In this document: positions 3,344-41,304 of the stretch, piece by piece
How positions within the stretch are numbered: the first letter of the stretch is position 1
Layout: each line of letters opens with the position of its first letter
NCBI GenBank assembly: GCA_015039465.1
Contig: MU130264.1
Span: forward strand, 127,965 to 174,591
Origin: Phlegmacium glaucopus
Lineage: Eukaryota > Basidiomycota > Agaricomycetes > Agaricales > Cortinariaceae
Direction of reading: 5' to 3'
DNA: 46,627 nucleotides
The notes under the pieces: generated by a model
Seen by the model: the letters and a program-made list of their open reading frames with translations, nothing else
What the model was told of the DNA's origin: nothing
The model's database searches: none
Program-made: the position numbers and the translations under genes

Positions 3344-6300
3344 CTAGACGTCATTATCTTGCGGGTGCGAACATACCAGATATTTGGGGAAAAGATGAAC
3401 GCTGCGGCGGATATTAGCTAACGGAATGATACTGCATATATGTGTCCCGTCTCTATCCTTCTGCGGTGAAACTTTGTACAGGAGGTGATTGGGTTCTGGG
3501 TTATCGGGAAGGGGAGTATACCACTCAACGTATGCGAGATGTTCAGGAACTTCAGTACCGTCAGTAAACACAATGGGGAGGGCACGCTTGGGAATTGAGA
3601 AGACAACACGGATACGTCCAATGTGGTAGCCTGATTTTCGGGAAAAACTTCGAATCTCATGGCAGAAAATTGACATCAAAGACATACCGTCGAGACCAAT
3701 ATCTTCTCCAGTTCCATCGTTGATCAATCCAGTATCAAAACGGCTCGGAATGAGTTTTCCATGTGAATCCTCCCGCTCTGGACGACAATGGATCGAATCA
3801 GAAGTTGAGACTGTCAATGTTGATGGATCCGTTCGCATAAACTTGATGCGGTGCCACACTGCGACTTTGGTGAACGGCATGCGAATCCCCCAAAGTTTTC
3901 GTTCGAGCTGCGCGCGTGTGAGGTCAGGGTCATTGCTCAAAGCAATAAAGCGTGCAAGGGCTGTGCGAAAGTGAGTGGCGCCATATTTCGTGACCAAAAC
4001 ATTGAGTGGGACTGCCCAAAGCGAAGGATGTTTTGTGAGCTTGAGAGCTCGATCAAGCTCAAGCCCAGGAGGTGTCCATTCAACGTGTGGAGGACAGGGA
4101 CAGCCCTCGAGTTGCCATTCAACATATTGGCGGTGCCAAAGAATTTTCTCCTTTCGTTCTAGCCAAATTGTCATCTGTGTGAATTCGTCCTTGTGGTTTG
4201 TCGCGGCATAGGCATCCTTTGCGAGATCGATGTGAAGGCGTTCCGTGTACTCGGTGTTAAAGTTGTCCAGTGTGCCGTAAAGCTTGATGTATTCGACGTA
4301 GTGCCTGGCAGAATGAAGTTTGGGAATGTTGAATGCATCGCGAATGTCAAGGTCCACAAAAATGCTCTTGTTATCATGAAAGCGCCGGAGGGAATCTTCG
4401 AGAAGTTGAAGGGTTTCATCAGTATGTACCGGATATTGGGCAAGGTAAAGAAAATCAAGGAGCGCACGAACCGCGCGAACCAAGCGAGCATTGGATAGTC
4501 CACCTGGGAGGGGAGCATCGAGCACAAGGCCCATGAGAATACGGCTCATTTGGTCATGCTCCTGGCCAGTTACCCTTGAGAGACTTGTGATACCTTTGAT
4601 GAAATGCCGAATGTTGTGATTCGGTGGCATTCAACGACACCGCGCGTCAACCTCGAGAGGTCCCAAGGCCTTAGTAACCCAAGAAATCAGGTGCTTGATG
4701 ATGCCCTGATAGAGTTGATGGAGGATGTCGGGGGTGATGGACCGATAGATGTGGACATAAGGCAAGTCCTTCCAGAACAGCTCAACAATGGGCTTGATAC
4801 CCGCCTCTGAACACACCTCCAAAAAACCTCCTGGATCATCGTCAAAGGAATCTAATGCCTCGAGGATCTGTTCAAGATCACGATGCCCAAGGTTTTGACC
4901 TTCAACAAATTCACCTAATTTATCTCGCGGGGTTTCACATGTTGGGCATTCTCCAGTTTTCGTACATGTTGTGAGGACTTGTTCAGGGTAATCGCCAGAA
5001 AAGCAGGCAAGGAGAGGGTGGTTTCGATGTACAGAGCCGTCGCCAGTTGCCATAAAAATCCCAGATACGCCAGCCGATTTCAGAGGCTCAAGAACACGCC
5101 CCATGCATGCATGATATAGGTTTGCTAGCTGGCGTCGTCGAGCGGCTTTATTTGAAACATTTTCGAGCCTTGTGGTAGGAAGGTATGCAAGTAGGATGTA
5201 GGCACGGTTTGATGGTTTGCGACATATTTCCTTAGGGATATTGCCAATCGTGAGATAAAGAGGGTATGCACTTTTGTTGCGGAAGGTTGTGAGCTGTGTT
5301 TTATCGGTTGATATTATGACTGGGAGGATAGTCGCCCCAGGTTTATCTTTCTCAAGCTCTTCCTAAAGAAGTAGTTCAGCGTGGGATCTGGGCTCATTGA
5401 TTGTCAACGTCAACTTGACATTGAACTCTTACCTGCGTTGACCACCACCACCTTCCTGTATGCATATCATGATATAGCCGTACATTTTTTCTATCATCGG
5501 TATAATGCTTCTCAGGTCCGAAGACTAGATACGGTGCAAATGATGGATCACCAAACAAGGCTCGTATACATGCAATAATGTCACGAAAGTAAACCTCACA
5601 GACTTCATCACCGACAATGATTTCATGCCGTTCGAACCGTGGACGTCCAGGTAAGTGATTATCAATGATCTTGTTTAACTCTGCTGTATTCTTGAAGGAT
5701 AGACCAAGGCGCTCAGGGACCTAGAAATTGAATCACTTCGATTAGGACCACAGGTGCGTATTCTGACCATCTCACTTACTCCTTCAATGCTCATTAGTTC
5801 TGTGAATGCAGTCGAACTTGGGCCCTGAGTCTTTGCCCAAAGCGCAACTTCCCACTCGATTTTTGAATGAAACGGGTTGAAGGGGTTTTCCTGGTTCCCA
5901 ATTTGTGAAGTATAGGCGGTGTTCTGGTCGATGCAATCTGGGTTTGTGTATGTTGCTCCTGCCTTTCCTTTGCTGAATTTAACAACGTAGGGTTTCTTCT
6001 TCAGCTCGGTCTCGGCCCCGCCCCACATTCGGCTGGCACCTGATGTTGGACTTGGAGTGCCACTCAATTCCGCTTCATCAATGATTAGTGTTGACTCAGA
6101 TGTTCTCGGAATTTGGCTAGGTTCCAAGGAATCTGCACCTTCCTCCTCTTCATCACTATCTGAATCTGATCCGTGAGTAGGATTTTCTTCCAATTCTTCC
6201 TCAGGATCTAACCCGAATTCCTCAGGAGTATAATCATCATAGTTTCCAAAGAAGTCGCCTGTGGGATCAACCTCAAAGTCCTCAATGGTTTCATCAGCTC

Positions 6301-20874: not shown

Positions 20875-20875
20875 C

Positions 20876-20904
<29 letters not shown>
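20875..20904. repeat. Poly-C run of 30 bases upstream of a gene
   Basis: Thirty consecutive C occur 37 bp before the ATG at 20942, inside the likely 5' UTR or core promoter. The length may be an assembly estimate. Confidence 0.85.
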
Positions 20905-27715: not shown

Positions 27716-30700
27716 TCAACTAAGCGCCAATACACCCTCATCCCACTCCTGCTTCGTCACACACCCCGAACTCCGACAAACCGGACACGATACCTCGATA
27801 TTACCTCCTTCAATAACACTGACATCCGCACCAACCGACGCAACTCTCTCGGCACTAACAAGACACCCAGGATGGAATGTATGCAGGCATACTCCTTCCG
27901 CTTTCCCGTCCGACCCGTGGTTCTTGTTCATGATGACCAGTTGTCGCACCCCAGCAGTTTTGGTTTCATCGGCGACGACTGGGTCCTCATCTGATGGTCC
28001 AACCCCGCAGCTCATATCATAACACCTCAACCCAGCATCTCTCTCCCTCCTCTCAATGCGTTGACGTAGCGTCGGGCCGGGAGCAGGAGGTAACGTCCAT
28101 GCTTTCTTCACTCTCTCTTGACCACCACCACCACCACCGTTAACGTTTGCATTCGCAGCGCCATTAGGATTGAAGATGGGAATTTGATCGAACAAGGATG
28201 CGAGGTTGGTAACTGGACCAATGGTGACGTTACCGAACGCGAACTGAGCTTGTGGTCGAGGTCTTCCACCGTTATTATTGGCATTAGGTCCCTCAGCCGG
28301 CTCCTGGCCTGCTTGAGGTTGAGGTTGAGGTTGTCCTTGTCCTTGAGCTTGCTGAGCCTGCGGCTGGGGACCTCCCATCAAATTCGCAAACATCTGTGAA
28401 ACGAAGTCATTCATCGTCCTGCCATCCTCCTGTCCGAAATGATTGCCAACATTGAACCCAGCGTTCAACCCAGCCATGAAAGGCGAGAATCCTTGACCCT
28501 GCTGCTGTTGGGGTTGTGGCTGCTGCTGGGGCACTGGTGGCGCGTCACTTTGAGTGCTTGGAACACCAGCTGCTGCTCCTTGAGTACCCTGTTCCTGCCG
28601 GGGCGCCTGACCTTGCTGCGTCTGAGTCCCAGCTTGCGCTTGTCCTCGCGCATGTCTTGCTGCATGATTCAAGAAATTCATGACCTGAGCATACTCCTGC
28701 CTGTCCTGCTCGTCCTGTGCCGCAACAGCAGCAGGATCTCCATCAAGTCCAACTCCACCTTGTTCCATATTCAAATCAACAATCATGCCCATCCCTTCAT
28801 CGATATCCATAATCATATCATCTTCATCTGCCAACTCTGGGTGCATGCCGAGATCCTCACCCATGTTCAAGCGAGCGGCTCGCACACCCGCCAGAGTCGA
28901 TCGACGTAAATTTTCAGCATCCTCAGGTGTAAGATCTGCTGAAAGCAGGTGTTGTATTAGCTGATCTTGGTTGTTCATTGTAGCAGCTCCCTCAATATCT
29001 AGGAAGGGGTTGGCGGGTACGGCTTGGTTTGAGTTGGCATTGTCGTTATTGGCAGTTGTGTTTGCAGGTGGTGCGGGAGCAGCGCCTTGGGGTTCTCCTC
29101 TCTGGGCTCCGAATTCGGGCATATGCGGCAATTGGACGTGGAAGTGTGGAAATGGTAGGGCACGTGGATGAAGTTGGGGGAAGGCTGGTAGGGAGGACGT
29201 TGAAAAGAAGGGTGCACGAGATAGATACATTGCAGGGGAACGAGAAGGATGGTAGAAAAGAGAAAATCGTGGGTAATGAGCATCTCGTCGTGTAGCTAGG
29301 TGCATATACTCACCTTGGGGGGTATTGGCATTCGCATTGTTGACATTGGTAGGTTGTCCTTGTCCTTGGGGATTTGCATTCGTAGCTATAGATACAGAAT
29401 CAACTTCAGATATCTCAAGGGAAGAGTAAGAATAATTGCCTCCTGCTTGAACGCCCGCCCCAACGCCATTGCCAACAGAGGGAAAGGGGAAATTGAGAGG
29501 AAAAGGGATGAGTGTGACCAACCCATGTGCGGTTTGGATCGTCCTTGGCGCGAGATGGTCATTCTGTCTTGGTCGTGGTGCTTGAGTTTGTGCTGGAGCT
29601 GGTGCTGGAGCTGGAGCGCCACCTGGTGTCGATGCTAGAGGGGGCTCGTTTGCATGAGGAAGCACAGACGGAGCCTGGATTCCATGTCCATCTCCTTGTT
29701 CCTGTGCTTCTTCTCCATCTTCTTCGCCATCGTCCTCGCCCTCGTCACCATATTCATCTTCATCCTCATCTTCGTCATCATCTTCGTCATCGCTGTCACT
29801 CATATCTTGCAACTCGGGCATCGCATCCCAGTCGTCACCACCTTCCTGAGTACGAGCATTGATATTAGCATATCTAGAGCCAGCTTCAGGTGTGGAGAGT
29901 GTTTGAGCAGTAGGCTGGGAGGTTAATGGGGCGGGGGCGGATGATGAAGACGACGACGACGCGGTTGCTTGACCTGGAGGAGGTTGGGATTGGCTGCGGG
30001 GCATCGGTGTGGGATGGGTGTTGAGTACTGATACATCAGGAGTTTGTGAACGGACATGAACAATAGGTGGGGATTCTAATGATGACAGGAAGTTCAGAAC
30101 ATGTTCGGAAACTGAAGGACCATCGGTTGAGGGTGCAATAATCGGTTCAGCGGCGGCTGCAGGAGCAGCAATTCCATCTTGGCTTGATTCATTTCCTTCT
30201 GTATCCTCTGAATCACCCCTCGTCCTCGCCTCCGCCCTCTCTCTTTCTCGGCGTTCCCTCATTCGCCTTCTCCAAGAAACGTACGTTAGATTCTCAGGAT
30301 CGATATTAAACCTACAAGTCGGACATGTCGTCTGGCGCGGTCTCGAGAACCAAGGAATCAAGCATTCTGCATGGAAGACGTGGGCGCAGGGGAGAGACAC
30401 GATTTTGGCAGTACTAGGTTTCGAGGCTTGATCACCGTTTGTAGATTGAGTTCGTTCGCTCTCCTCTTCCTTTTTCTCGCTTCCCTCATGCTGATGCACA
30501 TCTTCTTCAGAACTAGTACCACCCAACAGCTTATCCCAACAGATTGCACAACCGCCGTCTCCACCTTTTGTCTCATCCTCTCCCATCCCCCCTCCAGTTC
30601 CTCCAACCCTTTCCAACCGCCTCACCAACCCCACAGGTACCTCCTCTAATCCATCCACGAGCTTCCTAGCTCTCTCTGGATCTTCTTTCTCTCCAAAGCC

Positions 30701-31855
30701 ACTACCATCGAGGTTGAACCCAAAACCAAGCCCAGCAAGGTTAGCTAGATTAAACCCTCCAACAGGGAAATTGAACCCGAACTGAGCACCTGGAGTAGCT
30801 CCAGCATCACCAGTACCTTGATCAGGATTGTTGCCGCCAGCAGCTGGACCAGTAGCACCAGTCTCCCCTTCAGCAGCGTTTTCGCCTAGACCCATAGCCT
30901 GGCCGAAAAGGCCGAATCGAGCCATGAAGTCTGCAAAGTTGGCGTTTGGAGGTAGTTCATTCTGGGCATTAGGGTTGACATTAAGATTTGGGTCAGCGGC
31001 GTTAGGGGTGGGTTCTCCGTCAAGTGGTTGAGTTGCCCCTCCCCTGTGGAAGGCTGGACCAAGGCCAATGTCTAACGTGAGTGAGAAACCTTCAATGATG
31101 GGATGTCGACCGTGGGGCTGATTGTGGGGAGTATTCCCGTTCTGATGGGGCTGTGGTTCTGGCATCGGACCTCGGGAAGGAGGGACGGGATCGGTGTTGC
31201 CAGCGTCATTGATATTGTCATTATCGTTGTTGTTGTTGGACATCATGTGCTGGAAGAAGCGGAAGGGATGTGGGCGGAGAGTTGTTGTTTCATCTACAAC
31301 GGTGCGGCTGAAAATGGGTGCTTGGCCTCGGAGGCGAGCGCCGGGCGTTGGCTGAGGAGCGGTGGTTGGTGTTTGAGAGGAAGGGGGTGATACAGGAGTT
31401 GATGATGAAGGCCCCGCTGAAGACACAGAATTTCCAATGCGCTGCGAAGGGTGTCTGCGATCCCGGTCCTCATCTTCGTCATCTTCTACCCTGGCGCGTC
31501 TATTATTTACCGCTGGTTGATCTTGGGATGTATACGAAGGAGGAGATGGATTAGGGACAGTATTTTCGCTCAAACGTTGATCGTTAACAGTCTGCATTTC
31601 AACCTCGTAAGCATCCCGGTCTGATTCAGAATCGTGGTTATTGTCACGGTCTTCGTCTGAAGAGTTAGATAAGGATGCAAGAGGAGGCATATCGGAGACT
31701 GCGCCGCTCATCTCCACGTCTGCAGTCGCCGTCTGTGGCCCAGTATTATGCGATCGAGCGGCGCCTAAAGGAACAAGTTCTGGTATGTCATCGTCGTTAT
31801 CTGGATGCTGAGCTATAAAGACATGGATAGCATTCTGAAAATGATTATTATCCAT
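27716..31855 (-). CDS. Large disordered protein with two RING-H2-like clusters, probable E3 ubiquitin ligase
   Basis: ATG 31853-31855 (MDNNHFQNAIHVFIAQHPDN) opens 1379 codons to TGA at 27716. The canonical RING-H2 has C436-x2-C439, a 50-residue insert, then C490-x-H492-x2-H495-x2-C498 and C511-x2-C514 (SLPCAHVFHAECLIPWF, TTCPTCRFNIDP), followed by a basic helix RRRMRERRERERAEAR. Near the C-terminus a second cluster appears: CYDMSC, then CLHTFHPGC, then CPVC. Between them are acidic runs (DDEDEDEDEYGDEGEDD) and Q/P/A-rich disordered stretches. RING-H2 proteins pass ubiquitin from an E2 to a substrate. The long disordered flanks recall the nuclear quality-control ligase San1, but that is a guess. 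A strong in-frame donor (GTGAGT at 29308-29313) means a segment near 29100-29313 might be an unspliced intron. Confidence 0.8.
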   Translation of the reverse strand: MDNNHFQNAIHVFIAQHPDNDDDIPELVPLGAARSHNTGPQTATADVEMSGAVSDMPPLASLSNSSDEDRDNNHDSESDRDAYEVEMQTVNDQRLSENTVPNPSPPSYTSQDQPAVNNRRARVEDDEDEDRDRRHPSQRIGNSVSSAGPSSSTPVSPPSSQTPTTAPQPTPGARLRGQAPIFSRTVVDETTTLRPHPFRFFQHMMSNNNNDNDNINDAGNTDPVPPSRGPMPEPQPHQNGNTPHNQPHGRHPIIEGFSLTLDIGLGPAFHRGGATQPLDGEPTPNAADPNLNVNPNAQNELPPNANFADFMARFGLFGQAMGLGENAAEGETGATGPAAGGNNPDQGTGDAGATPGAQFGFNFPVGGFNLANLAGLGFGFNLDGSGFGEKEDPERARKLVDGLEEVPVGLVRRLERVGGTGGGMGEDETKGGDGGCAICWDKLLGGTSSEEDVHQHEGSEKKEEESERTQSTNGDQASKPSTAKIVSLPCAHVFHAECLIPWFSRPRQTTCPTCRFNIDPENLTYVSWRRRMRERRERERAEARTRGDSEDTEGNESSQDGIAAPAAAAEPIIAPSTDGPSVSEHVLNFLSSLESPPIVHVRSQTPDVSVLNTHPTPMPRSQSQPPPGQATASSSSSSSAPAPLTSQPTAQTLSTPEAGSRYANINARTQEGGDDWDAMPELQDMSDSDDEDDDEDEDEDEYGDEGEDDGEEDGEEAQEQGDGHGIQAPSVLPHANEPPLASTPGGAPAPAPAPAQTQAPRPRQNDHLAPRTIQTAHGLVTLIPFPLNFPFPSVGNGVGAGVQAGGNYSYSSLEISEVDSVSIATNANPQGQGQPTNVNNANANTPQGEYMHLATRRDAHYPRFSLFYHPSRSPAMYLSRAPFFSTSSLPAFPQLHPRALPFPHFHVQLPHMPEFGAQRGEPQGAAPAPPANTTANNDNANSNQAVPANPFLDIEGAATMNNQDQLIQHLLSADLTPEDAENLRRSTLAGVRAARLNMGEDLGMHPELADEDDMIMDIDEGMGMIVDLNMEQGGVGLDGDPAAVAAQDEQDRQEYAQVMNFLNHAARHARGQAQAGTQTQQGQAPRQEQGTQGAAAGVPSTQSDAPPVPQQQPQPQQQQGQGFSPFMAGLNAGFNVGNHFGQEDGRTMNDFVSQMFANLMGGPQPQAQQAQGQGQPQPQPQAGQEPAEGPNANNNGGRPRPQAQFAFGNVTIGPVTNLASLFDQIPIFNPNGAANANVNGGGGGGQERVKKAWTLPPAPGPTLRQRIERRERDAGLRCYDMSCGVGPSDEDPVVADETKTAGVRQLVIMNKNHGSDGKAEGVCLHTFHPGCLVSAERVASVGADVSVIEGGNIEVSCPVCRSSGCVTKQEWDEGVLALS

Positions 31856-32638: not shown

Positions 32639-34370
32639 ATGTCTACCGATATCGAACAGCAGAATGGTGTGTTAAATATAAGTAACCTGATTCGATACTG
32701 CCTGACCTTTATTTTCTTCGCAAGATGACCTACAGGATTTCGACAGCCGTGCAGACAAATTATGGTCGATATACAACAAGGAGGCAGAAAGTTATGACAG
32801 GGCCCTCATGGAGACTTGGAAAGACGACATGGATACCATCATCATCTTCGTGCGTATACATCGCACCAATCCAGATTTCATTTAGAACTCGTTTGCCTTT
32901 TCATCTCATAACAGGCTGGTCTTTTTTCTGCCGTTTTAACCGCCTTCCTTGTTAATGCATCCAGGGATCTCAAGGCAAATCCTACAGATCAGACAAATGC
33001 ATTGTTGAGCCAAACTGTGGCTCTTCTCGCCCAGATCTCACAACAACTCGGACCCAATGGCTCTCAGACCATCATATCATTACCCCAGCCATTGGAACCA
33101 TTTAAGCTGAAGTCTTCCGACCTCTGGGTCAACATTTTTTGGTACATGAGTCTAGGTTTCAGCATCACTGCTGCGCTTGGGGCGACCCTTGTGCAGCAAT
33201 GGGTCCGCGAGTATTTACAGGTTTTTCAACGGCTTAGCGGTTCTTTGGAGCGTTCGCGAATGCGGCAATATCTATTCCATGGATTAGCTAGCAATTACAT
33301 GTCGTTATTAGTCAAGGGCATTCCTACATTCATCCATATTTCCCTCTTCTTCTTCTTTGTCGGTCTCGCCAACAATCTTTTTGCCACCAACAATGCTGTC
33401 GCTATAACAATAACTTCTATCATCGGGTTTTGCGCTGTCTTCTACCCCGGGTTTTCGGTTTTCCCTATTCTCTATCCCCAAACTCCTTTCCATACCCCAT
33501 TGTCCAACATTTTTTGGAGATTAGCACAAATCATCCGCCTTCGCAAATACAGAGACAGAAATACAGAAGGCAAATTTGTACCTGTGAACTTTAACATGGC
33601 CAAGGGCTGTTTGCAACTTGCTATGGACCACTCTAATAATCGCATGACGCGTGATACGGAGGCAATACACTGGGTGCTCAACAAAATCACAGAAGACAGC
33701 GAATTCGAGCCATTCGCTGCTGGCATTGGAGGATCACTGGCCACTCCATGGGGAAAAGATATCTGGAAGAATATCTTCGGAGAAAACCCTGGAAACATGC
33801 CCTCGACACGTTATAACACTGTAATAACTTCGAATACTGTCCAAACGCTCAGGATTCGTATCGAAAGTCTCATGCGTTCCTGCACTGTTTCAACGTTCTC
33901 TGACCAGCAAAGTCGATTCACGCGTGCATGCGTTCAAGTTTGTATTGATGCTGTGGCATCTCTCACTCTAGGCTTTGAGGCCGAATCGGAGCTTGACATC
34001 GACAATGACCTCATGAACGAAGTTCTTGATTTCTTTGGTGATGAGAGAAAGAGACGGGATAAACTAGTGGCACAGGAGGCTGAGACTTCATTTGGTTCAG
34101 CCATGAACCTACGTCAGCTGTCAGGCAATCAAGTGGTGGATACATCGCTCGAAAAAATAATTGAAGTGCTTACTATATATACGTAAGTATCCAGATACAA
34201 GCATCGTGATATATGGTTTGTCCATATCTTTTCGAAAACTTTTTTCAATGTTGATTCTCGGGCTATAGGCTTCCTTCGTTCACTGGGACAGTCGCGAAGT
34301 CGCTTGCCGATTCGATTCCACCAAGCACCCAAAGTTCATCGATAATCTTCCACTTCTATCTGCGCTATAA
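32639..34370 (+). CDS. DUF6535 membrane protein
   Basis: Exons are 32639-32666, 32725-32849, 32915 to about 34181, and a last exon from about 34270 ending TAA 34368-34370. It starts MSTDIEQQN, continues DLQDFDSRADKLWSIYNKE, then MDTIIIFAGLFSAVLTAFLV (first membrane segment), SSDLWVNIFWYMSLGFSITA, the characteristic LVQQWVREYLQVFQR, LFHGL, and two more membrane segments around FIHISLFFFFVGLANNLFA and AITITSIIGFCAVFYPGFSV. These features are typical of DUF6535, a large Agaricomycete family of unknown function. The C-terminal half is soluble. A broken paralogue lies at 41062-43483. The final exon (VHWDSREVACRFDSTKHP) is supported by a GTAAGT donor and a CTATAG acceptor. Confidence 0.82.
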
Positions 34371-35549: not shown

Positions 35550-38500
35550 ATGGATCACTTGTTGTCCAGCAAACCTGTGAACGACCAACCGCTCACCAAT
35601 CCAAACTATCTACTTGAAGGCTCTCAGTCACCATCGTCATATGGCGTCTTCTTTACCAACGCAAATGGGCTCAGCATCAACCAAAGCACATTCAATGTCG
35701 TTCATGGAAATATGAATGTTTCTTCTAGGGAACAGCCATCTCACGTACGTACTAAGGTCGAGTCGACTACAGCCCAAAAACTGACTTCATTCAAGTGGAA
35801 TAAGTACCAATGGGTTGACTTCGATCAGCAAACACTGCGACGTCTACATACCAGTTCCACTGGCATTGTGACCATGGAGATGGAACCAATGACATTGACC
35901 TCGCGTGTTAAAACCTATCGTATCCATTGGTACGGGGATAGGAAAGATATTTTTTACAATCATCTGGAGTATGCTAAATCACCGTGTGTTTTGTTGCCTT
36001 GGTGTACCATTTCAAAAATTCTGACACATACTGTAAAGACTGGCTCGTCGGCCAGATATACCCCAGTTCTTTGGAACTTCTATTGATAATGAGGATAGTG
36101 ACCGATTTATTGTCCTTTCTGGTGGTATGAGTGTAGCCTTACAAATTCTACATGCCACTCACATTGTGTTTCTGCAGGTGGTTTGTCATTGTCAAATGCT
36201 TTTATTGGAAGTCATGCAGACTTAGAAATAATAAAGATAGCCTCTGTATGTTCTGATTGATTGAGTTTCTGCCATCTTTTCATGATGTTAACTGACCATT
36301 GCTCAGTTTTTTCAACTACTGGTGAGCACTTACATAGAATCATTAATATATATCTGAAAAAAAATGGGAAATTGTAGGACATATTCAGCACAAGCCCCTT
36401 TACTGTGTTACTCTGGGATTGGTCAAGACTTTGGGACCTACCCATATTTTCTTCAACTTGTGGACTTCTTGTAGATGTTATTCTCCTTGAATCATATGGG
36501 TTGCTAGCAAGTTCCAAAGGGGGTAGCAAGAGGGTAATATAATCATAAAACCATGAAATGTGTACTAACTTGTTCATCAAAGAATATTGAAAATTTCTAT
36601 GCAAGGCTACAACTTCGGATATGTGAGTGATGTGGCCTTTATAAAAGAAGTAGAAAGAGACTCACTGTGGTTCATGATGCAGTACCTGGTGATATGGAAA
36701 GAATGTTGCATTTCAGGCCAGATATGGTCATCTTAAGAGAGACTGTTATAGAAAGCAGTGAGATGGCAAGAAGAACAGTCAGTAACTAGAATCAATCCTG
36801 GCTATCATCTCTAGCTGACAACAATGATCTCCCTCTGTATTGCAGTATGTAAGTGCTCTCTCTCCTGGCTGTCATCCCTAGTTGACAACAATGATGTCTC
36901 TCTGCATTGCAGTGGGTGAGTTGCTCTCTCTCCTGCATATCATCCTTAGCTGATAACAATGATATCTCGCTGCATTCCAGTTGGTGAGTGCTCTCTCTTG
37001 TGGCTGTCATCCTTAGCTGACAACAATGATGTCTCTCTGCATTGCAGGATGTGAGTACTCTCTCCTGGCTGTTATCCCTAGCTGACAACAATGATGTCTC
37101 ACTGCATTCCAGTTGGTGAGTGTTCTCTCCTGGCTGTCATCCCTAGCTGACAACAATGATGTTTCTGCATTTCAGGGTGTGAGTGCTCTCTCTCCTGGCT
37201 GTCATCCCTAGCTAACAAGAATGACATCTCTCTGCATTTCAGAATGTGAGTGCTCTTCTCCTTGCTGTCATCCCTAGCTGACAACAGTGATGTCTCTGCA
37301 TTGCAGTGGGTAAGTGCTCTCTCTCCTGGCTGTCATCCCTAGCTGACAACAATGATGTCTCACTGCATTCCAGTTTGTGAGTGGTCTTTTTCCTAGCTGC
37401 CATCCCTAGCTGACAACAATGATGTTTCTCTGCATTGCAGAATGTGAGTGCTTTCTCCTGGCTGTCATCCCTAGCTGACAACAATGATGTTTCTGCATTG
37501 TAGCCTGTAAGTGCTCTCTCTCCTGGCTGTCATCCCCAGCTGACAACAATGATGTCTCTCTGTGTTGCAGGATGTGAGTGCTCTCTCTCCTGGCTGTCAT
37601 CCCCAGCTGACAACAATGATGTCTCTCTGTGTTCCAGGATGTGAGTGCTCTCTCCTTGTTGTCATCCCCAGCTGACAACAATGATGTCTCTCTGTGTTCC
37701 AGGATGTGAGTACTCTCTCTCCCAGCTGTCATCCCTAGCTGATAACAATGATGTTTCTGCATTGTAGCCTGTGAGTGCTCTCTCTCCTGGCTGTCATCCC
37801 TAGCTGATAACAATGATGTCTCTCTATTCTAGTTTGTGAGTGCTCTTTTTCCTGGCTGTCATCCCTAGCTGACAACAATGATATCTCTCTGCATTGCAGA
37901 ATGTTAGTGCTCTCTCTCTCCTGCATATCATCCCTAGCTGACAACAATGATCTCTCTCTGCATTGCAGGATGTGAGTGCTCTCTCTCTACTTTCTGTCAT
38001 CCCTAGCCAACAACAATGATGTTTCTGCATTTCAGAATGTGAGTGCTCTCTCTCCTGGCTGTCATCCCTAGCTGACAACAATGATCTCTCTTTGTATTGC
38101 AGTATGTAAGTGCCTCTCCCTGCTGGTTGTCATCCCTAGCTGACAACAATGATGTTTCTCTGCATTCAAGATTGTGAGTGCTCTCTCTCCTGGCTGTCAT
38201 CCCTTGCTGACAACAATGATATCTCTCTGCATTGCAGGATGTGAGTGCTCTCTCTCCTGTCTGTCATCCCTAACTGACAACAATAATGTTTCTGCATTTC
38301 AGGAAGTGAGTGCTCTCTCTCCCAGCTGTCATCCCTAGCTGACAAGAATGATGTCTCACTGCATTCCAGTGGGTGAGTGCTCTCTCTCCTGGCTGTCATC
38401 CCTTGCTGACAACAATGATGTTTCTGCCTTGCAGCATGTGAGTGATCTCTCTCCTGGCTGTCATCTCTAGCTGATAACAATGATGTTTCTGCATTGCAGC

Positions 38501-39896
38501 GTGTGAGTCCTCTCTCTCCTGGCCATCATCCCTAGCTGACAAGAATGATGTCTCACTGCATTCCAGTTTGTGAGTGCTCTCTCCTGGCTGTCATCCCTAG
38601 CTGACAACAATGATGTTTCTGCCTTGCAGCATGTGAGTGCTCTTTCACTTGGCTATCATCCCTAGCTGACAACAATGATGTTTCTGTATTTCAGGGTGTG
38701 AGTGCTCTCTCTCCTGGCTGTCATCCCTAGCTGACAATGTTGATATCTCACTGAATTACAGTTTGTGAGTGCTCTCTCTCCTGGCTGTCATCCTGAGCTG
38801 ACAACAGTGATGTTCCTCTGCATTCCAGATTGTGAGTGCTCTTTCTCCTGGCTGTCATCCCTAGCTGACAACAATTGTCTCTCTGCATTGCAGAAACCAA
38901 CATCTGGAATTGAAGAACTCAGTGATGGTCAGTTTGTCTGTCTACTTATTTTCCTTGTTTGATTATGACATGGTCATTCAGATATAATGCATGTGGATTC
39001 TGTAGGTGCTTTCTCCTCCTGTCATCTCTAGCTGACAACAATTGTGTCTCTGAATTTCAGAATGCAACATCTGGAATTGAAGAATTCAGTGGTCAGTTCA
39101 TCTATCTACTTATCTTCCTGGTTTGATTATGACATGGTCATTCAGATGTAATGCATGTGGATTCTGTAAGTGGCTTTCTCCTGGCTGTCATCCCTATCTG
39201 AGTACAACAACCCCACAGGATGTAGGTTGTCTCTGAATGACTGTCTTCCTTAGCTGACAACAATATCTTCTTTCTATGTTATAGTTTGTCAGTGTTTTGC
39301 TTTATCATCATGTTATATTTCTATGCTTAATGTTACTAATTAGTTTTCAAACAACTCAACATCTAGGATTGAAGAAACTAATGATGGTGAGTGCCTTTTT
39401 ATGATACCTCCATTTTGTGGTTATAATATAAACATTCAAATTCAATGCATGTAGATTATGTGAGTGCTCCCTCCTGGCTGTCATTCATAGTTGACAATTT
39501 CTCTCTGTATCACAGCTTGTGAGCTTGCTGTCTCCTGGATATTGTCCTTAGCTGACAGCAATAACTTCTGTCTGTATTACAGGATGTAAGTATTCTCTGA
39601 CCTGACATCGTCCTTAGCTGACAACAATGTTCTCTTTCCATATTGCAGTTTGTGAGTGCCTTTCTCTATTATTTTACTACAGTATCTTTTTATGCTTAAT
39701 GCTATTAATCAGGCTTCTTACAACTCAAAATCTGGAATACAAGAACTCAGTGATGGTGAGTGTGTCTATTCATGATATCTTCCATTTGTGATTATTATAC
39801 TGTTATCCAGATGAAATGCATGTGGATTCCTGCTCCATCAAGGAACTTTTTAATGTTGGGAGTTCAGAGAGAAGGTCCAAGGATTTAGACCATTAG
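35550..39896 (+). CDS. Gene with 36 three-nucleotide exons (hypothetical, Agaricomycete family)
   Basis: Conventional exons: 35550-35985, 36056-36124, 36178-36245, 36307-36321, 36378-36533, 36583-36622, 36683-36777. Then come 31 exons of 3 nt between 36846 and 38831, followed by 38894-38927, 38982-39001, 39061-39091, 39146-39165, GAT 39219, TTT 39285, 39344-39386, 39455-39459, CTT 39516, GAT 39583, TTT 39649, 39713-39755 and 39811-39896 (TAG). Every junction keeps frame and no stop occurs; total 422 residues, or 405 if the in-frame segment with donor GTACGT near 35741 is a 51-nt intron. The N-terminus (GLSINQSTFNVVHGNMN; SPYIPQFFGTSIDNEDSDRF; FIGSHADLEIIKIASFFQLL) resembles a family often seen in Agaricomycetes, function unknown. 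Exon 7 ends ESSEMARRT. The tail repeats TSGIEELSD and MHVDS. Splicing of the 3-nt exons is inferred, not shown. Confidence 0.7.
36778..38893 (+). repeat. Tandem array of 32 intron monomers separated by 31 three-base exons
   Basis: Each monomer is 60-66 nt and reads as a complete spliceosomal intron: donor GTGAGTGCTC (GTAAGT or GTTAGT in a few), CCTAGCTGACAACAATGATG around the branch site, a CT-rich tract, and acceptor GCATTGCAG or GCATTCCAG. Between each acceptor and the next donor are exactly three bases, starting at 36846, 36913, 36981, 37048, 37113, 37176, 37243, 37307, 37374, 37441, 37504, 37571, 37638, 37703, 37768, 37833, 37900, 37969, 38036, 38103, 38171, 38238, 38303, 38370, 38435, 38500, 38567, 38630, 38695, 38762 and 38829. 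Triplet counts: GAT 6, AAT 4, TTT 4, TGG 3, two each of TAT, TTG, GGT, CCT, ATT and CAT, one GAA and one CGT. Spacing varies from 63 to 69, but the variable length lies within the intron part. Confidence 0.9.
38894..39896 (+). repeat. Four exon modules: TSGIEELSD exon plus MHVDS exon
   Basis: The pair of an exon coding (S/T)SGIEELSD-like residues and an exon coding (D/S)xMHVDS recurs at 38894/38982, 39061/39146, 39344/39440-39459 and 39713/39811. Introns between the two exons of a pair resemble each other (TTTGATTATGACATGGTCATTCAG in the first two). Introns after the MHVDS exons resemble the array monomer. Two and three single-codon exons follow modules 2 and 3. Confidence 0.75.
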
Positions 39897-41061: not shown

Positions 41062-41304
41062 GATACTACAGGTCTTTGTTACTGTTTCAACATTCTCTGA
41101 CCAGCAAATTTGATTCATGTGTGCTTGTGTTTGCATAGATGCTGTGGCATCTCTCACTCTAGGCTTTAAGGCCAAGTTGGAGCTTGACATCAATAATGAC
41201 CTCATGAACAAAGTACTTGGTTTTTTTGGTAATGAGAAAAAGAGATGGGATAAACCAGCAGTGCAGGACTCCAGGAGGCTGAGGCTTCATTTGGTTCAGC
41301 CATG

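What the first reader, a model, noticed from the sequence alone, without database searches (positions are those of the whole stretch)
36778..38893. A gene with 31 consecutive single-codon (3-nt) exons
Seen directly: 32 near-identical intron-like monomers, each with GTGAGT-like donor, CTGAC-like branch site and TGCAG-like acceptor, are separated by exactly three bases 31 times out of 31. Intron parts vary by indels (monomer period 63-69), yet the spacer never changes length, while its sequence is far more variable than the flanks (12 different triplets). Exon 7 ends in phase 0 (codon ACA, 36777) and the exon after the array starts in phase 0 (AAA CCA ACA, 38894), so every triplet is a codon. 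None is a stop; residues are mostly D, N, F, W, H, G, P, Y. Known: 3-nt exons exist singly in other eukaryotes; I know of no array like this. Inference: each 3-nt exon can be kept or skipped without frame change, so one gene could produce very many peptide variants. The rival view is a single 2.1-kb intron made by intron duplication.
Basis: partly seen in the sequence, partly recalled or inferred. Interest (0 to 1): 0.97.

Follow-up and report, generated by a model that had tools for sequence, protein, structure and literature searches.

The report
Mushroom gene with one-codon exons
In the genome of a mushroom, seven copies of one gene each carry a row of similar intron-like units with 19 to 32 spacers between them, every spacer but one exactly three bases long and none a stop codon, so part of the protein is likely pieced together one amino acid per exon and could gain, lose or swap residues without losing its reading frame.

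Summary
The window holds 32 intron-like units separated by exactly 3 nt, 31 times of 31, in frame inside a predicted 52-exon gene. The genome (Phlegmacium glaucopus, by a named protein on a contig of the same length) holds seven copies, each with such an array. In all, 180 of 181 spacers are 3 nt and one is 6. Splice signals are kept far better than the rest of the introns; triplets vary far more than most intron columns. No stop occurs among 180 triplets (8.2 expected by column shuffling). Homologous proteins P0007 and P0008, from short contigs without the upstream introns, carry 35 and 49 extra residues at the array site. I infer functional single-codon exons, spliced in turn, that add a hypervariable peptide rich in aromatic and, mostly, acidic residues. 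Against this, the deposited gene model joins 36777 directly to 38894. No RNA read was available, and the DNA behind P0007 and P0008 was not seen. Combinatorial choice of codons is untested. My literature searches found single 1- and 3-nt exons and schistosome micro-exon genes, but no such array.

The parts
35550..35744 (+). exon 1 (predicted), starts MDHLLSSK; holds the STFNVVHGNMNV stretch
   Evidence: residues 1-281 of the model are identical to deposited protein P0001; open in the paralogues
35796..35983 (+). exon 2 (predicted)
36039..36124 (+). exon 3 (predicted)
36178..36245 (+). exon 4 (predicted)
36307..36321 (+). exon 5 (predicted, 15 nt)
36378..36533 (+). exon 6 (predicted)
36583..36622 (+). 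exon 7 (predicted)
36683..36777 (+). exon 8 (predicted), ends in phase 0 before the array (..EMARRT)
36778..38893 (+). array: 32 intron-like units and 31 predicted single-codon exons, peptide YWLDLGNWFNPDDDPFNDNYIDEWHRFHGFI
36846..36848 (+). single-codon exon 1 of array (predicted), TAT
36913..36915 (+). single-codon exon 2, TGG
36981..36983 (+). single-codon exon 3, TTG
37048..37050 (+). single-codon exon 4, GAT
37113..37115 (+). single-codon exon 5, TTG
37176..37178 (+). single-codon exon 6, GGT
37243..37245 (+). single-codon exon 7, AAT
37307..37309 (+). single-codon exon 8, TGG
37374..37376 (+). single-codon exon 9, TTT
37441..37443 (+). single-codon exon 10, AAT
37504..37506 (+). single-codon exon 11, CCT
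37571..37573 (+). single-codon exon 12, GAT
37638..37640 (+). single-codon exon 13, GAT
37703..37705 (+). single-codon exon 14, GAT
37768..37770 (+). single-codon exon 15, CCT
37833..37835 (+). single-codon exon 16, TTT
37900..37902 (+). single-codon exon 17, AAT
37969..37971 (+). single-codon exon 18, GAT
38036..38038 (+). single-codon exon 19, AAT
38103..38105 (+). single-codon exon 20, TAT
38171..38173 (+). single-codon exon 21, ATT
38238..38240 (+). single-codon exon 22, GAT
38303..38305 (+). single-codon exon 23, GAA
38370..38372 (+). single-codon exon 24, TGG
38435..38437 (+). single-codon exon 25, CAT
38500..38502 (+). single-codon exon 26, CGT
38567..38569 (+). single-codon exon 27, TTT
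38630..38632 (+). single-codon exon 28, CAT
38695..38697 (+). single-codon exon 29, GGT
38762..38764 (+). single-codon exon 30, TTT
38829..38831 (+). single-codon exon 31, ATT
38894..38927 (+). exon after the array (predicted), module 1 (KPTSGIEELSD), starts in phase 0
38982..39001 (+). module 1 second exon (DIMHVDS)
39061..39091 (+). module 2 exon (NATSGIEEFS)
39146..39165 (+). module 2 second exon (DVMHVDS)
39219..39221 (+). downstream single-codon exon GAT (predicted; not in P0001); GAT, GGT or AAT at the matching place in five paralogues
39285..39287 (+). downstream single-codon exon TTT (predicted; not in P0001); CTT in one paralogue
39344..39386 (+). module 3 exon (FSNNSTSRIEETND)
39440..39459 (+). 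module 3 second exon (DSMHVDY; predicted, not in P0001); its acceptor reads AA instead of AG in this copy; an AG at 39453-39454 would give an in-frame 5-nt exon 39455-39459
   Evidence: sequence; AG at the matching place in the other copies printed
39516..39518 (+). downstream single-codon exon CTT (predicted; not in P0001)
39583..39585 (+). downstream single-codon exon GAT (predicted; not in P0001)
39649..39651 (+). downstream single-codon exon TTT (predicted; not in P0001)
39713..39755 (+). module 4 exon (ASYNSKSGIQELSD)
39811..39896 (+). last exon (DEMHVDSCSIKELFNVGSSERRSKDLDH) and stop TAG

Best explanation
[quoted passage not shown] How it would work (inferred): each unit carries a GTGAGT-type donor, usually a CTRAY branch site, and an AG acceptor, so each intron is recognised on its own (intron definition), with adjacent introns spliced in turn because two spliceosomes cannot sit on a 3-nt exon at once. 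Every triplet begins and ends in phase 0, so unequal exchange can add or delete units, and splicing could skip any run of them, without changing the frame. The array thus acts as a frame-proof, fast-changing peptide module between a conserved N-terminal part and repeated C-terminal modules (x-STSGIEELSD-xxMHVDS). Shown: the anatomy, its conservation in seven gene copies, the absence of stops, the excess variability of the triplets, and homologous proteins from short contigs with variable residues at that point. Inferred: that this array is spliced so in P. glaucopus, the order of splicing, that the triplets are under diversifying selection, and any use of skipping. The peptides are rich in F, D, L and W; my guess for function is a binding surface of the acidic-aromatic kind, untested.
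For: Spacer constancy: 31 of 31 here. In six arrays cut up by a script that allowed exons of 1-30 nt, 149 of 149 are 3 nt; with the seventh, read by eye and regex, 180 of 181. When units are found by the branch core instead of the splice sites (151 units, against 181 spacers in all), 151 of 151 hold AG-N3-GT/GC. Introns meanwhile run from 49 to 73 nt. Splice signals: the GT and AG columns are 0-1% non-consensus against a mean of 13% over the intron between donor and acceptor (the cut itself demanded GT or GC and AG, which one search checks without that demand). CTRAY sits in 162 of 188 introns; the only two GC donors are both the strong GCAAGT. Codons: 0 stops in 180 triplets, 8.2 expected, zero in 1 of 10,000 column shuffles; TAG, TGT and GTT are missing where 7.0, 8.7 and 13.7 were expected. 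Variability: entropy 1.71 and 1.80 bits at triplet positions 1 and 2 against a mean of 0.59 over 64 intron columns; at intron divergence 0.06-0.12 (202 unit pairs) positions 1-2 already differ by 0.52-0.64. Gene under constraint: exons 1-8 without a stop in all seven copies from where they align, mean dN/dS 0.49 over 15 pairs of six copies. Spliced-looking homologues: P0007 (352 aa in a 1110-base contig) crosses all seven upstream intron positions and P0008 (281 aa in 1324 bases, starting inside exon 2) crosses six, by eye on the alignments; they then carry 35 and 49 residues where the array lies, and P0008 goes on into STSKIEELSDDEMDIGS, the module after the array. P0007's peptide matches the array's residue make-up (log ratio +15 nats; best of 1486 windows of the family's own N-terminal part -1.5).
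Against: The deposited gene model P0001 (BYT27DRAFT_7183887) joins 36777 to 38894 with no array residue, and also lacks my five downstream single-codon exons as such; [quoted passage not shown] Other deposited models stop earlier, read through the first donor or skip further (P0002-P0005). No RNA read or isoform was seen. I did not see the DNA behind P0007 and P0008, so in those species the peptide might be one ordinary exon. P0008's and P0010's peptides do not match the array's residue make-up, and P0008's 49 residues include NEKELMELDS, which may be another copy of the module. The units share ancestry, so shuffles of triplets treat related data as independent. Triplet identity and intron distance are not associated overall (P 0.21), which an old pool of triplets reshuffled by recombination would also give; the four closest pairs (intron divergence under 0.06) mostly share the triplet. 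Three intron columns reach 1.2-1.6 bits, near the triplets. One copy (L026) lacks the normal start and the downstream modules yet keeps 22 of 22 spacers. Exon 47 of this gene has a broken acceptor.
Confidence: 0.86

Rival explanations
1. The array is one 2.1-kb intron that grew by tandem duplication of an intron-exon border; the inner splice sites are relics and the triplets are never in mRNA.
For: Deposited model P0001 joins 36777 to 38894. Both flanking exons are in phase 0, so this also keeps the frame.
Against: Relics should decay like the rest of the intron (mean 13% non-consensus), yet GT and AG are 0-1% off across 188 introns in seven genes, and 180 of 181 spacers keep 3 nt while the introns vary from 49 to 73. 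No stops in 180 triplets. P0007 and P0008 carry residues at this point. The two GC donors are of the GCAAGT type, the form known to work (recalled).
Confidence: 0.07
2. The codons are real but mostly optional: splicing joins any donor to any downstream acceptor, so one gene makes many in-frame peptides, from none to all 31 codons.
For: Donors and acceptors are alike in sequence and all phase 0, so every skip is in frame. P0001 (no codons) against P0007 and P0008 (35 and 49 residues) would fit both extremes.
Against: No two isoforms of one gene were seen. The long peptides in P0007 and P0008 rather suggest near-complete inclusion. The protein database is clustered at 90%, so isoforms could be hidden.
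Confidence: 0.35
3. An introner-like element was inserted again and again between the codons of an existing peptide-coding stretch, so the triplets are old codons and the introns young copies.
For: Triplet identity does not follow the similarity of the introns round it overall (P 0.21).
Against: Insertions at exact 3-nt steps, 180 times of 181, have no cause that I know of. Hits to the unit fall only in the seven gene copies (the search counts repeats as lower bounds). The most similar units tend to share the triplet (3 of 5, 7 of 20, 16 of 50, against 14% of 2317 pairs), as duplication of whole units predicts.
Confidence: 0.08
4. The array works as RNA or DNA, for example as a ratchet or decoy that slows splicing of a long intron, and the triplets are spacers without coding meaning.
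For: The units keep their splice signals.
Against: Does not explain the lack of stops, the skewed codon use (chi-square 245, reached in 0 of 2000 shuffles) or the constancy of 3 nt instead of 0 or any other length.
Confidence: 0.03

Closest known systems
Schistosome micro-exon genes (MEG; PMC10526429, one abstract passage)
   Same: Many very short exons in one gene, a family of paralogues.
   Different: There exons run from 3 to 81 bp and introns up to 5 kbp; here the array exons are one codon (one of two), introns are 49-73 nt, similar and in tandem, in a mushroom.
Single ultra-short exons: 1-nt exon of Arabidopsis APC11 (PMC4674806, passages), 1-nt exon of Fusarium CYP621A (PMC12940212, abstract), 3-bp micro-exon of Drosophila homothorax (PMC7392893, abstract start in listing)
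   Same: Show that exons of 1-3 nt can be spliced; PMC4674806 favours intron definition with the two flanking introns removed one after the other.
   Different: One such exon in the gene reported, not 19-32 in a row.
Plant micro-exons (PMC8831610, passages)
   Same: Flanking introns are likely removed consecutively; such exons are often missed by annotation.
   Different: Conserved exons of 1-15 nt in different genes; 'clusters' there are groups of related exons across species, not tandem arrays.
Introner-like elements of fungi (PMC4457414, search listing)
   Same: Many similar introns in one fungal genome.
   Different: Those multiply through the genome (recalled: in many unrelated genes); these were found only inside seven copies of one gene.
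Tandem exon clusters such as arthropod Dscam (named in the PMC10803435 listing; details recalled)
   Same: Clusters of alternative exons that diversify one protein segment.
   Different: Dscam exons are ordinary-sized and mutually exclusive (recalled); here a unit is one codon and many would be joined in series.

Membership tests
Spliceosomal intron (fungal, intron-defined) | GT or GC donor, CTRAY-like branch site, AG acceptor, length in the usual range | tested here: met
   188 introns of 49-73 nt as cut; 186 GT and 2 GC (GCAAGT) donors; AG in all (the cut demanded these; one search finds them in 151 of 151 units found by the branch core); CTRAY 10-45 nt from the 3' end in 162 of 188
Spliceosomal intron (fungal, intron-defined) | Removed from mature RNA | tested here: inconclusive
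   P0007 and P0008 look spliced upstream of the array but are other species, and their DNA was not seen; P0001 treats the array as one intron
Micro-exon gene (MEG) | Very short exons of 3-81 bp | tested here: met
   180 spacers of 3 nt and 1 of 6; that they are exons is inferred
Micro-exon gene (MEG) | Long introns (up to 5 kbp) between the short exons | tested here: not met
   Introns 49-73 nt
Micro-exon gene (MEG) | Secreted product | not tested
   No signal-peptide predictor at hand
Introner-like element | Similar introns in many unrelated genes | tested here: not met
   Two DNA searches of the whole genome hit only the seven gene copies; counts there are lower bounds
Non-coding minisatellite | No constraint on particular parts of the unit | tested here: not met
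   Splice-site columns and spacer length are constrained far more than the rest
Protein kinase fold (N-terminal part of the gene) | Significant sequence or fold match | tested here: inconclusive
   No Pfam family; one PDB sequence match at E 0.19, not a kinase; fold models poor (mean pLDDT 37.1 and 47.6); best Foldseek E 1.6, kinases among the weak rows

The most novel reading that the evidence does not exclude
A new kind of gene architecture: protein segments written one codon per exon, where the unit of evolution is 'intron plus one codon'. Tandem units are gained, lost and reshuffled like beads, and splicing may choose among them, so a mushroom gene family builds hypervariable acidic-aromatic peptides by a frame-proof route, possibly with very many isoforms per gene and possibly for recognition or binding of fast-changing partners.
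Probability: 0.4. Interest if true: 0.98.

Novelty: new variant of a known kind. Interest (0 to 1): 0.93.

Why it matters
If the array codons are in mRNA, this is the most extreme exon fragmentation that I know of: 36 of 52 predicted exons in one gene are single codons. It would show that the spliceosome can string dozens of 3-nt exons together, and give a natural test bed for the order and fidelity of splicing. It would also show a way to evolve a peptide by adding or removing single residues with no risk of frameshift. Three-base exons are hard for annotation and read mapping, and the deposited models of these genes leave out or run into the arrays, so such arrays may be overlooked elsewhere. 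The question whether introns can serve as a tool for protein diversification becomes directly testable with one long-read cDNA experiment.

Tried and rejected

Deposited model P0001 against my exons: residues 1-281 agree exactly. At the downstream modules P0001 has CF where I predict the two single-codon exons GAT and TTT; the only GT/GC-AG chain that gives CF uses a 6-nt exon with a GC donor. Its NDG-ASYN joint is given by no GT/GC-AG chain. This might be a forced alignment of a transcript with extra bases, but I cannot show it.

Absence of C at codon position 3 (0 of 180) looks at first like codon choice; the arrays are almost free of CpG (0 to 4 CpG per array, observed/expected 0-0.04, window 0.72) and C there would precede the donor's G, so loss of CpG is the simpler cause.

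Rows dropped and limits of counts: five TTT rows (followed by GTCTGT, inside an intron start) and one GTT row of the window gene (overlapping the GAT exon) were left out of the 27 downstream exons; that search demanded 3 nt, so their length is no independent test. L026 was left out of dN/dS (its start is missing). L023 failed the automatic cut (two GC donors) and was cut with a regex that allowed 3 nt or its one 6-nt spacer. One search covers 106 units (stricter core; 105 spacers of 3 nt, one of 6), one search covers 151.

Papers: ten searches used. That I found no such array in print rests in an open-access library only.


Full report
What is there. Between 36778 and 38893 lie 32 intron-like units separated 31 times by exactly three bases. 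Twelve different triplets occur, none a stop. I built a gene model by splice signals and comparison with paralogues: eight exons from 35550 to 36777, the array, then four modules of the type x-STSGIEELSD / xxMHVDS, ending in TAG at 39894-39896. The model is open throughout: 52 exons, 415 residues, 36 of the exons single codons (31 in the array, five downstream). One acceptor in module 3 reads AA instead of AG, and an alternative AG would give an in-frame 5-nt exon.

Where it comes from. A protein search found the same gene under a name: BYT27DRAFT_7183887 of Phlegmacium glaucopus, on a contig of 174,591 bases, the length of the contig of our window (C93 ends at 174,591). Its deposited sequence is identical to my residues 1-281 and agrees with the downstream modules apart from two odd joints and the part that it skips, but has no array residue.

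Seven copies. A DNA search with two units and a protein search of the whole genome both point to the same seven places. Every gene copy has an array at the same point. I fetched the six others. A script that allowed spacers of 1 to 30 nt cut six arrays into 31, 25, 24, 19, 28 and 22 spacers, all 149 of 3 nt. The seventh, L023, has two GC donors, both GCAAGT, and one 6-nt spacer; read by eye and regex it has 32 spacers, 31 of 3 nt. So 180 of 181 spacers are one codon and the other is two. If units are found by the branch core instead, 151 of 151 hold AG-N3-GT or GC. Strict sites number 15 to 30 per array against means of 0.02 to 0.07 in shuffles.

Constraint and freedom. The 188 introns vary from 49 to 73 nt, so the introns gain and lose bases while the spacers hardly do. 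At the GT and AG columns 0-1% depart from consensus; between donor and acceptor the mean is 13%. A CTRAY branch site lies in 162 of 188. The triplets behave in the opposite way: 1.71 and 1.80 bits of entropy at positions 1 and 2, against a mean of 0.59 over 64 intron columns, of which three reach 1.2-1.6. Pairs of units within one gene whose introns differ by 0.06-0.12 (202 pairs) already differ by 0.52-0.64 at positions 1-2. That is what coding triplets under pressure to differ, between introns that need only splice, would look like. An old pool of triplets reshuffled by recombination could give part of it: overall, triplet identity does not follow intron similarity (P 0.21), though the closest units share triplets more often than the 14% base rate (3 of 5, 7 of 20, 16 of 50).

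Codons. No stop occurs in 180 triplets. Column shuffles expect 8.2, and 1 in 10,000 has none. The triplets are 39 F, 37 D, 24 L, 16 W, 14 N, 11 S, 8 Y, 7 P, 6 H, 6 A, 5 I and seven of five other kinds. TGG and GAT are far more common, and GTT, TGT and TAG far rarer, than base make-up predicts. Acidic residues number 5 to 7 per array except 2 in L025. Units are related by descent, so these figures are guides, not exact probabilities. The lack of C at position 3 is likely due to the near-total loss of CpG in the arrays.

The host gene is not obviously dead. Exons 1-8 have no stop in any of the seven copies, once L026, which lacks the usual start, is read in its own frame. Mean dN/dS is 0.49 (0.32-0.80) over 15 pairs of six copies. 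Six copies keep the downstream modules, where I count 27 further 3-nt exons at matching places, none a stop (that pattern demanded 3 nt). L026 lacks the module strings looked for, and L024 has GTG at the start position.

Signs of splicing. Three homologous proteins come from short contigs: P0007 (352 aa, 1110 bases), P0008 (281 aa, 1324 bases) and P0010 (336 aa, 1273 bases). By eye on the alignments P0007 and P0010 run across the seven upstream intron positions of this gene and P0008, which starts inside exon 2, across six, so they look like spliced RNA; the records do not say so. P0007 goes on after the exon-8 part with KKDFEFDDELFDLDFFLDDFFFKEDELFDLDFFFG (35 residues). Its make-up fits the array triplets (+15 nats; best of 1486 windows of the family's own N-terminal part -1.5). 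P0008 goes on with 49 residues, among them NEKELMELDS, which may be a further module copy, and then STSKIEELSDDEMDIGS, the very module that follows the array here. The peptides of P0008 and P0010 do not fit the array's make-up. I could not fetch the DNA, so I cannot say that these residues come from single-codon exons. They do show that the site carries a variable stretch in what look like spliced products, which the one-intron view does not predict.

Against. The deposited P0001 treats the array as one intron, and JGI annotation in the paper that includes this species was aided by transcripts when available (PMC7550596, passages). Deposited models for other copies stop earlier, run into the first array intron or skip further. 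They disagree with each other as automatic models might when faced with exons they cannot represent, but I cannot exclude that most transcripts skip the array.

How it likely works. Papers on 1-nt and plant micro-exons favour splicing of the flanking introns one after the other, the former by intron definition (PMC4674806, passages; PMC8831610, passages). The short introns here suit that. All joints are phase 0, so loss or gain of units by unequal exchange, and any skipping, keep the frame. I take constitutive or near-complete inclusion as most likely, because P0007 and P0008 carry long stretches; choice among isoforms is possible but unseen. The acidic-aromatic make-up recalls activation-domain-like or other binding peptides; that is recalled knowledge and untested.

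Known or new. Single 1- to 3-nt exons, plant micro-exons and schistosome micro-exon genes are the nearest known things. I found no report of tandem single-codon exons in the searches, which cover open-access papers only. I file it as a new variant of micro-exon genes, not a member of the schistosome family, and keep the bolder reading in the section on the most novel reading.

Noticed in passing
all seven arrays, e.g. window 36778-38893: Arrays are almost free of CpG (0 to 4 per array, observed/expected 0-0.04, against 0.72 for the window), as expected if the repeats are methylated (inference); this also fits the absence of C at the third triplet position.
   Followed up: partly
L023, 5556 and 5622: The only two GC donors among 188 array introns, both GCAAGT.
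   Followed up: yes
L026, around 1766 and from 4532 on: This copy lacks the usual ATG region and the downstream module strings, yet its array and exons 1-8 are open: perhaps a young pseudogene or a rewired gene.
   Followed up: partly
window 39146-39755: The deposited protein P0001 has two joints here that are hard to explain: a 6-nt exon with a GC donor and a joint that no GT/GC-AG chain gives.
   Followed up: partly
window 33002-34186 and 41117-41300: A DUF6535 gene (Pfam E 8e-29) lies upstream of the array gene, and a short ORF downstream resembles its end by eye (no Pfam match; not aligned), as if a segment was duplicated round the gene.
   Followed up: no
window 3344-5104, minus strand: Pieces of a Plavaka-type transposon: Plavaka transposase (E 6e-45) and DUF6830 (E 3e-5, just under its curated cut-off).
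   Followed up: no
window 27716-31855, minus strand: 1379-aa open frame with a RING-H2 domain.
   Followed up: no
window 20875-20904: Run of 30 C, possibly an assembly artefact.
   Followed up: no
P0007 (homologue from an unnamed contig): Lacks the part after LLM that other copies have in exon 6, perhaps an alternative splice form.
   Followed up: no
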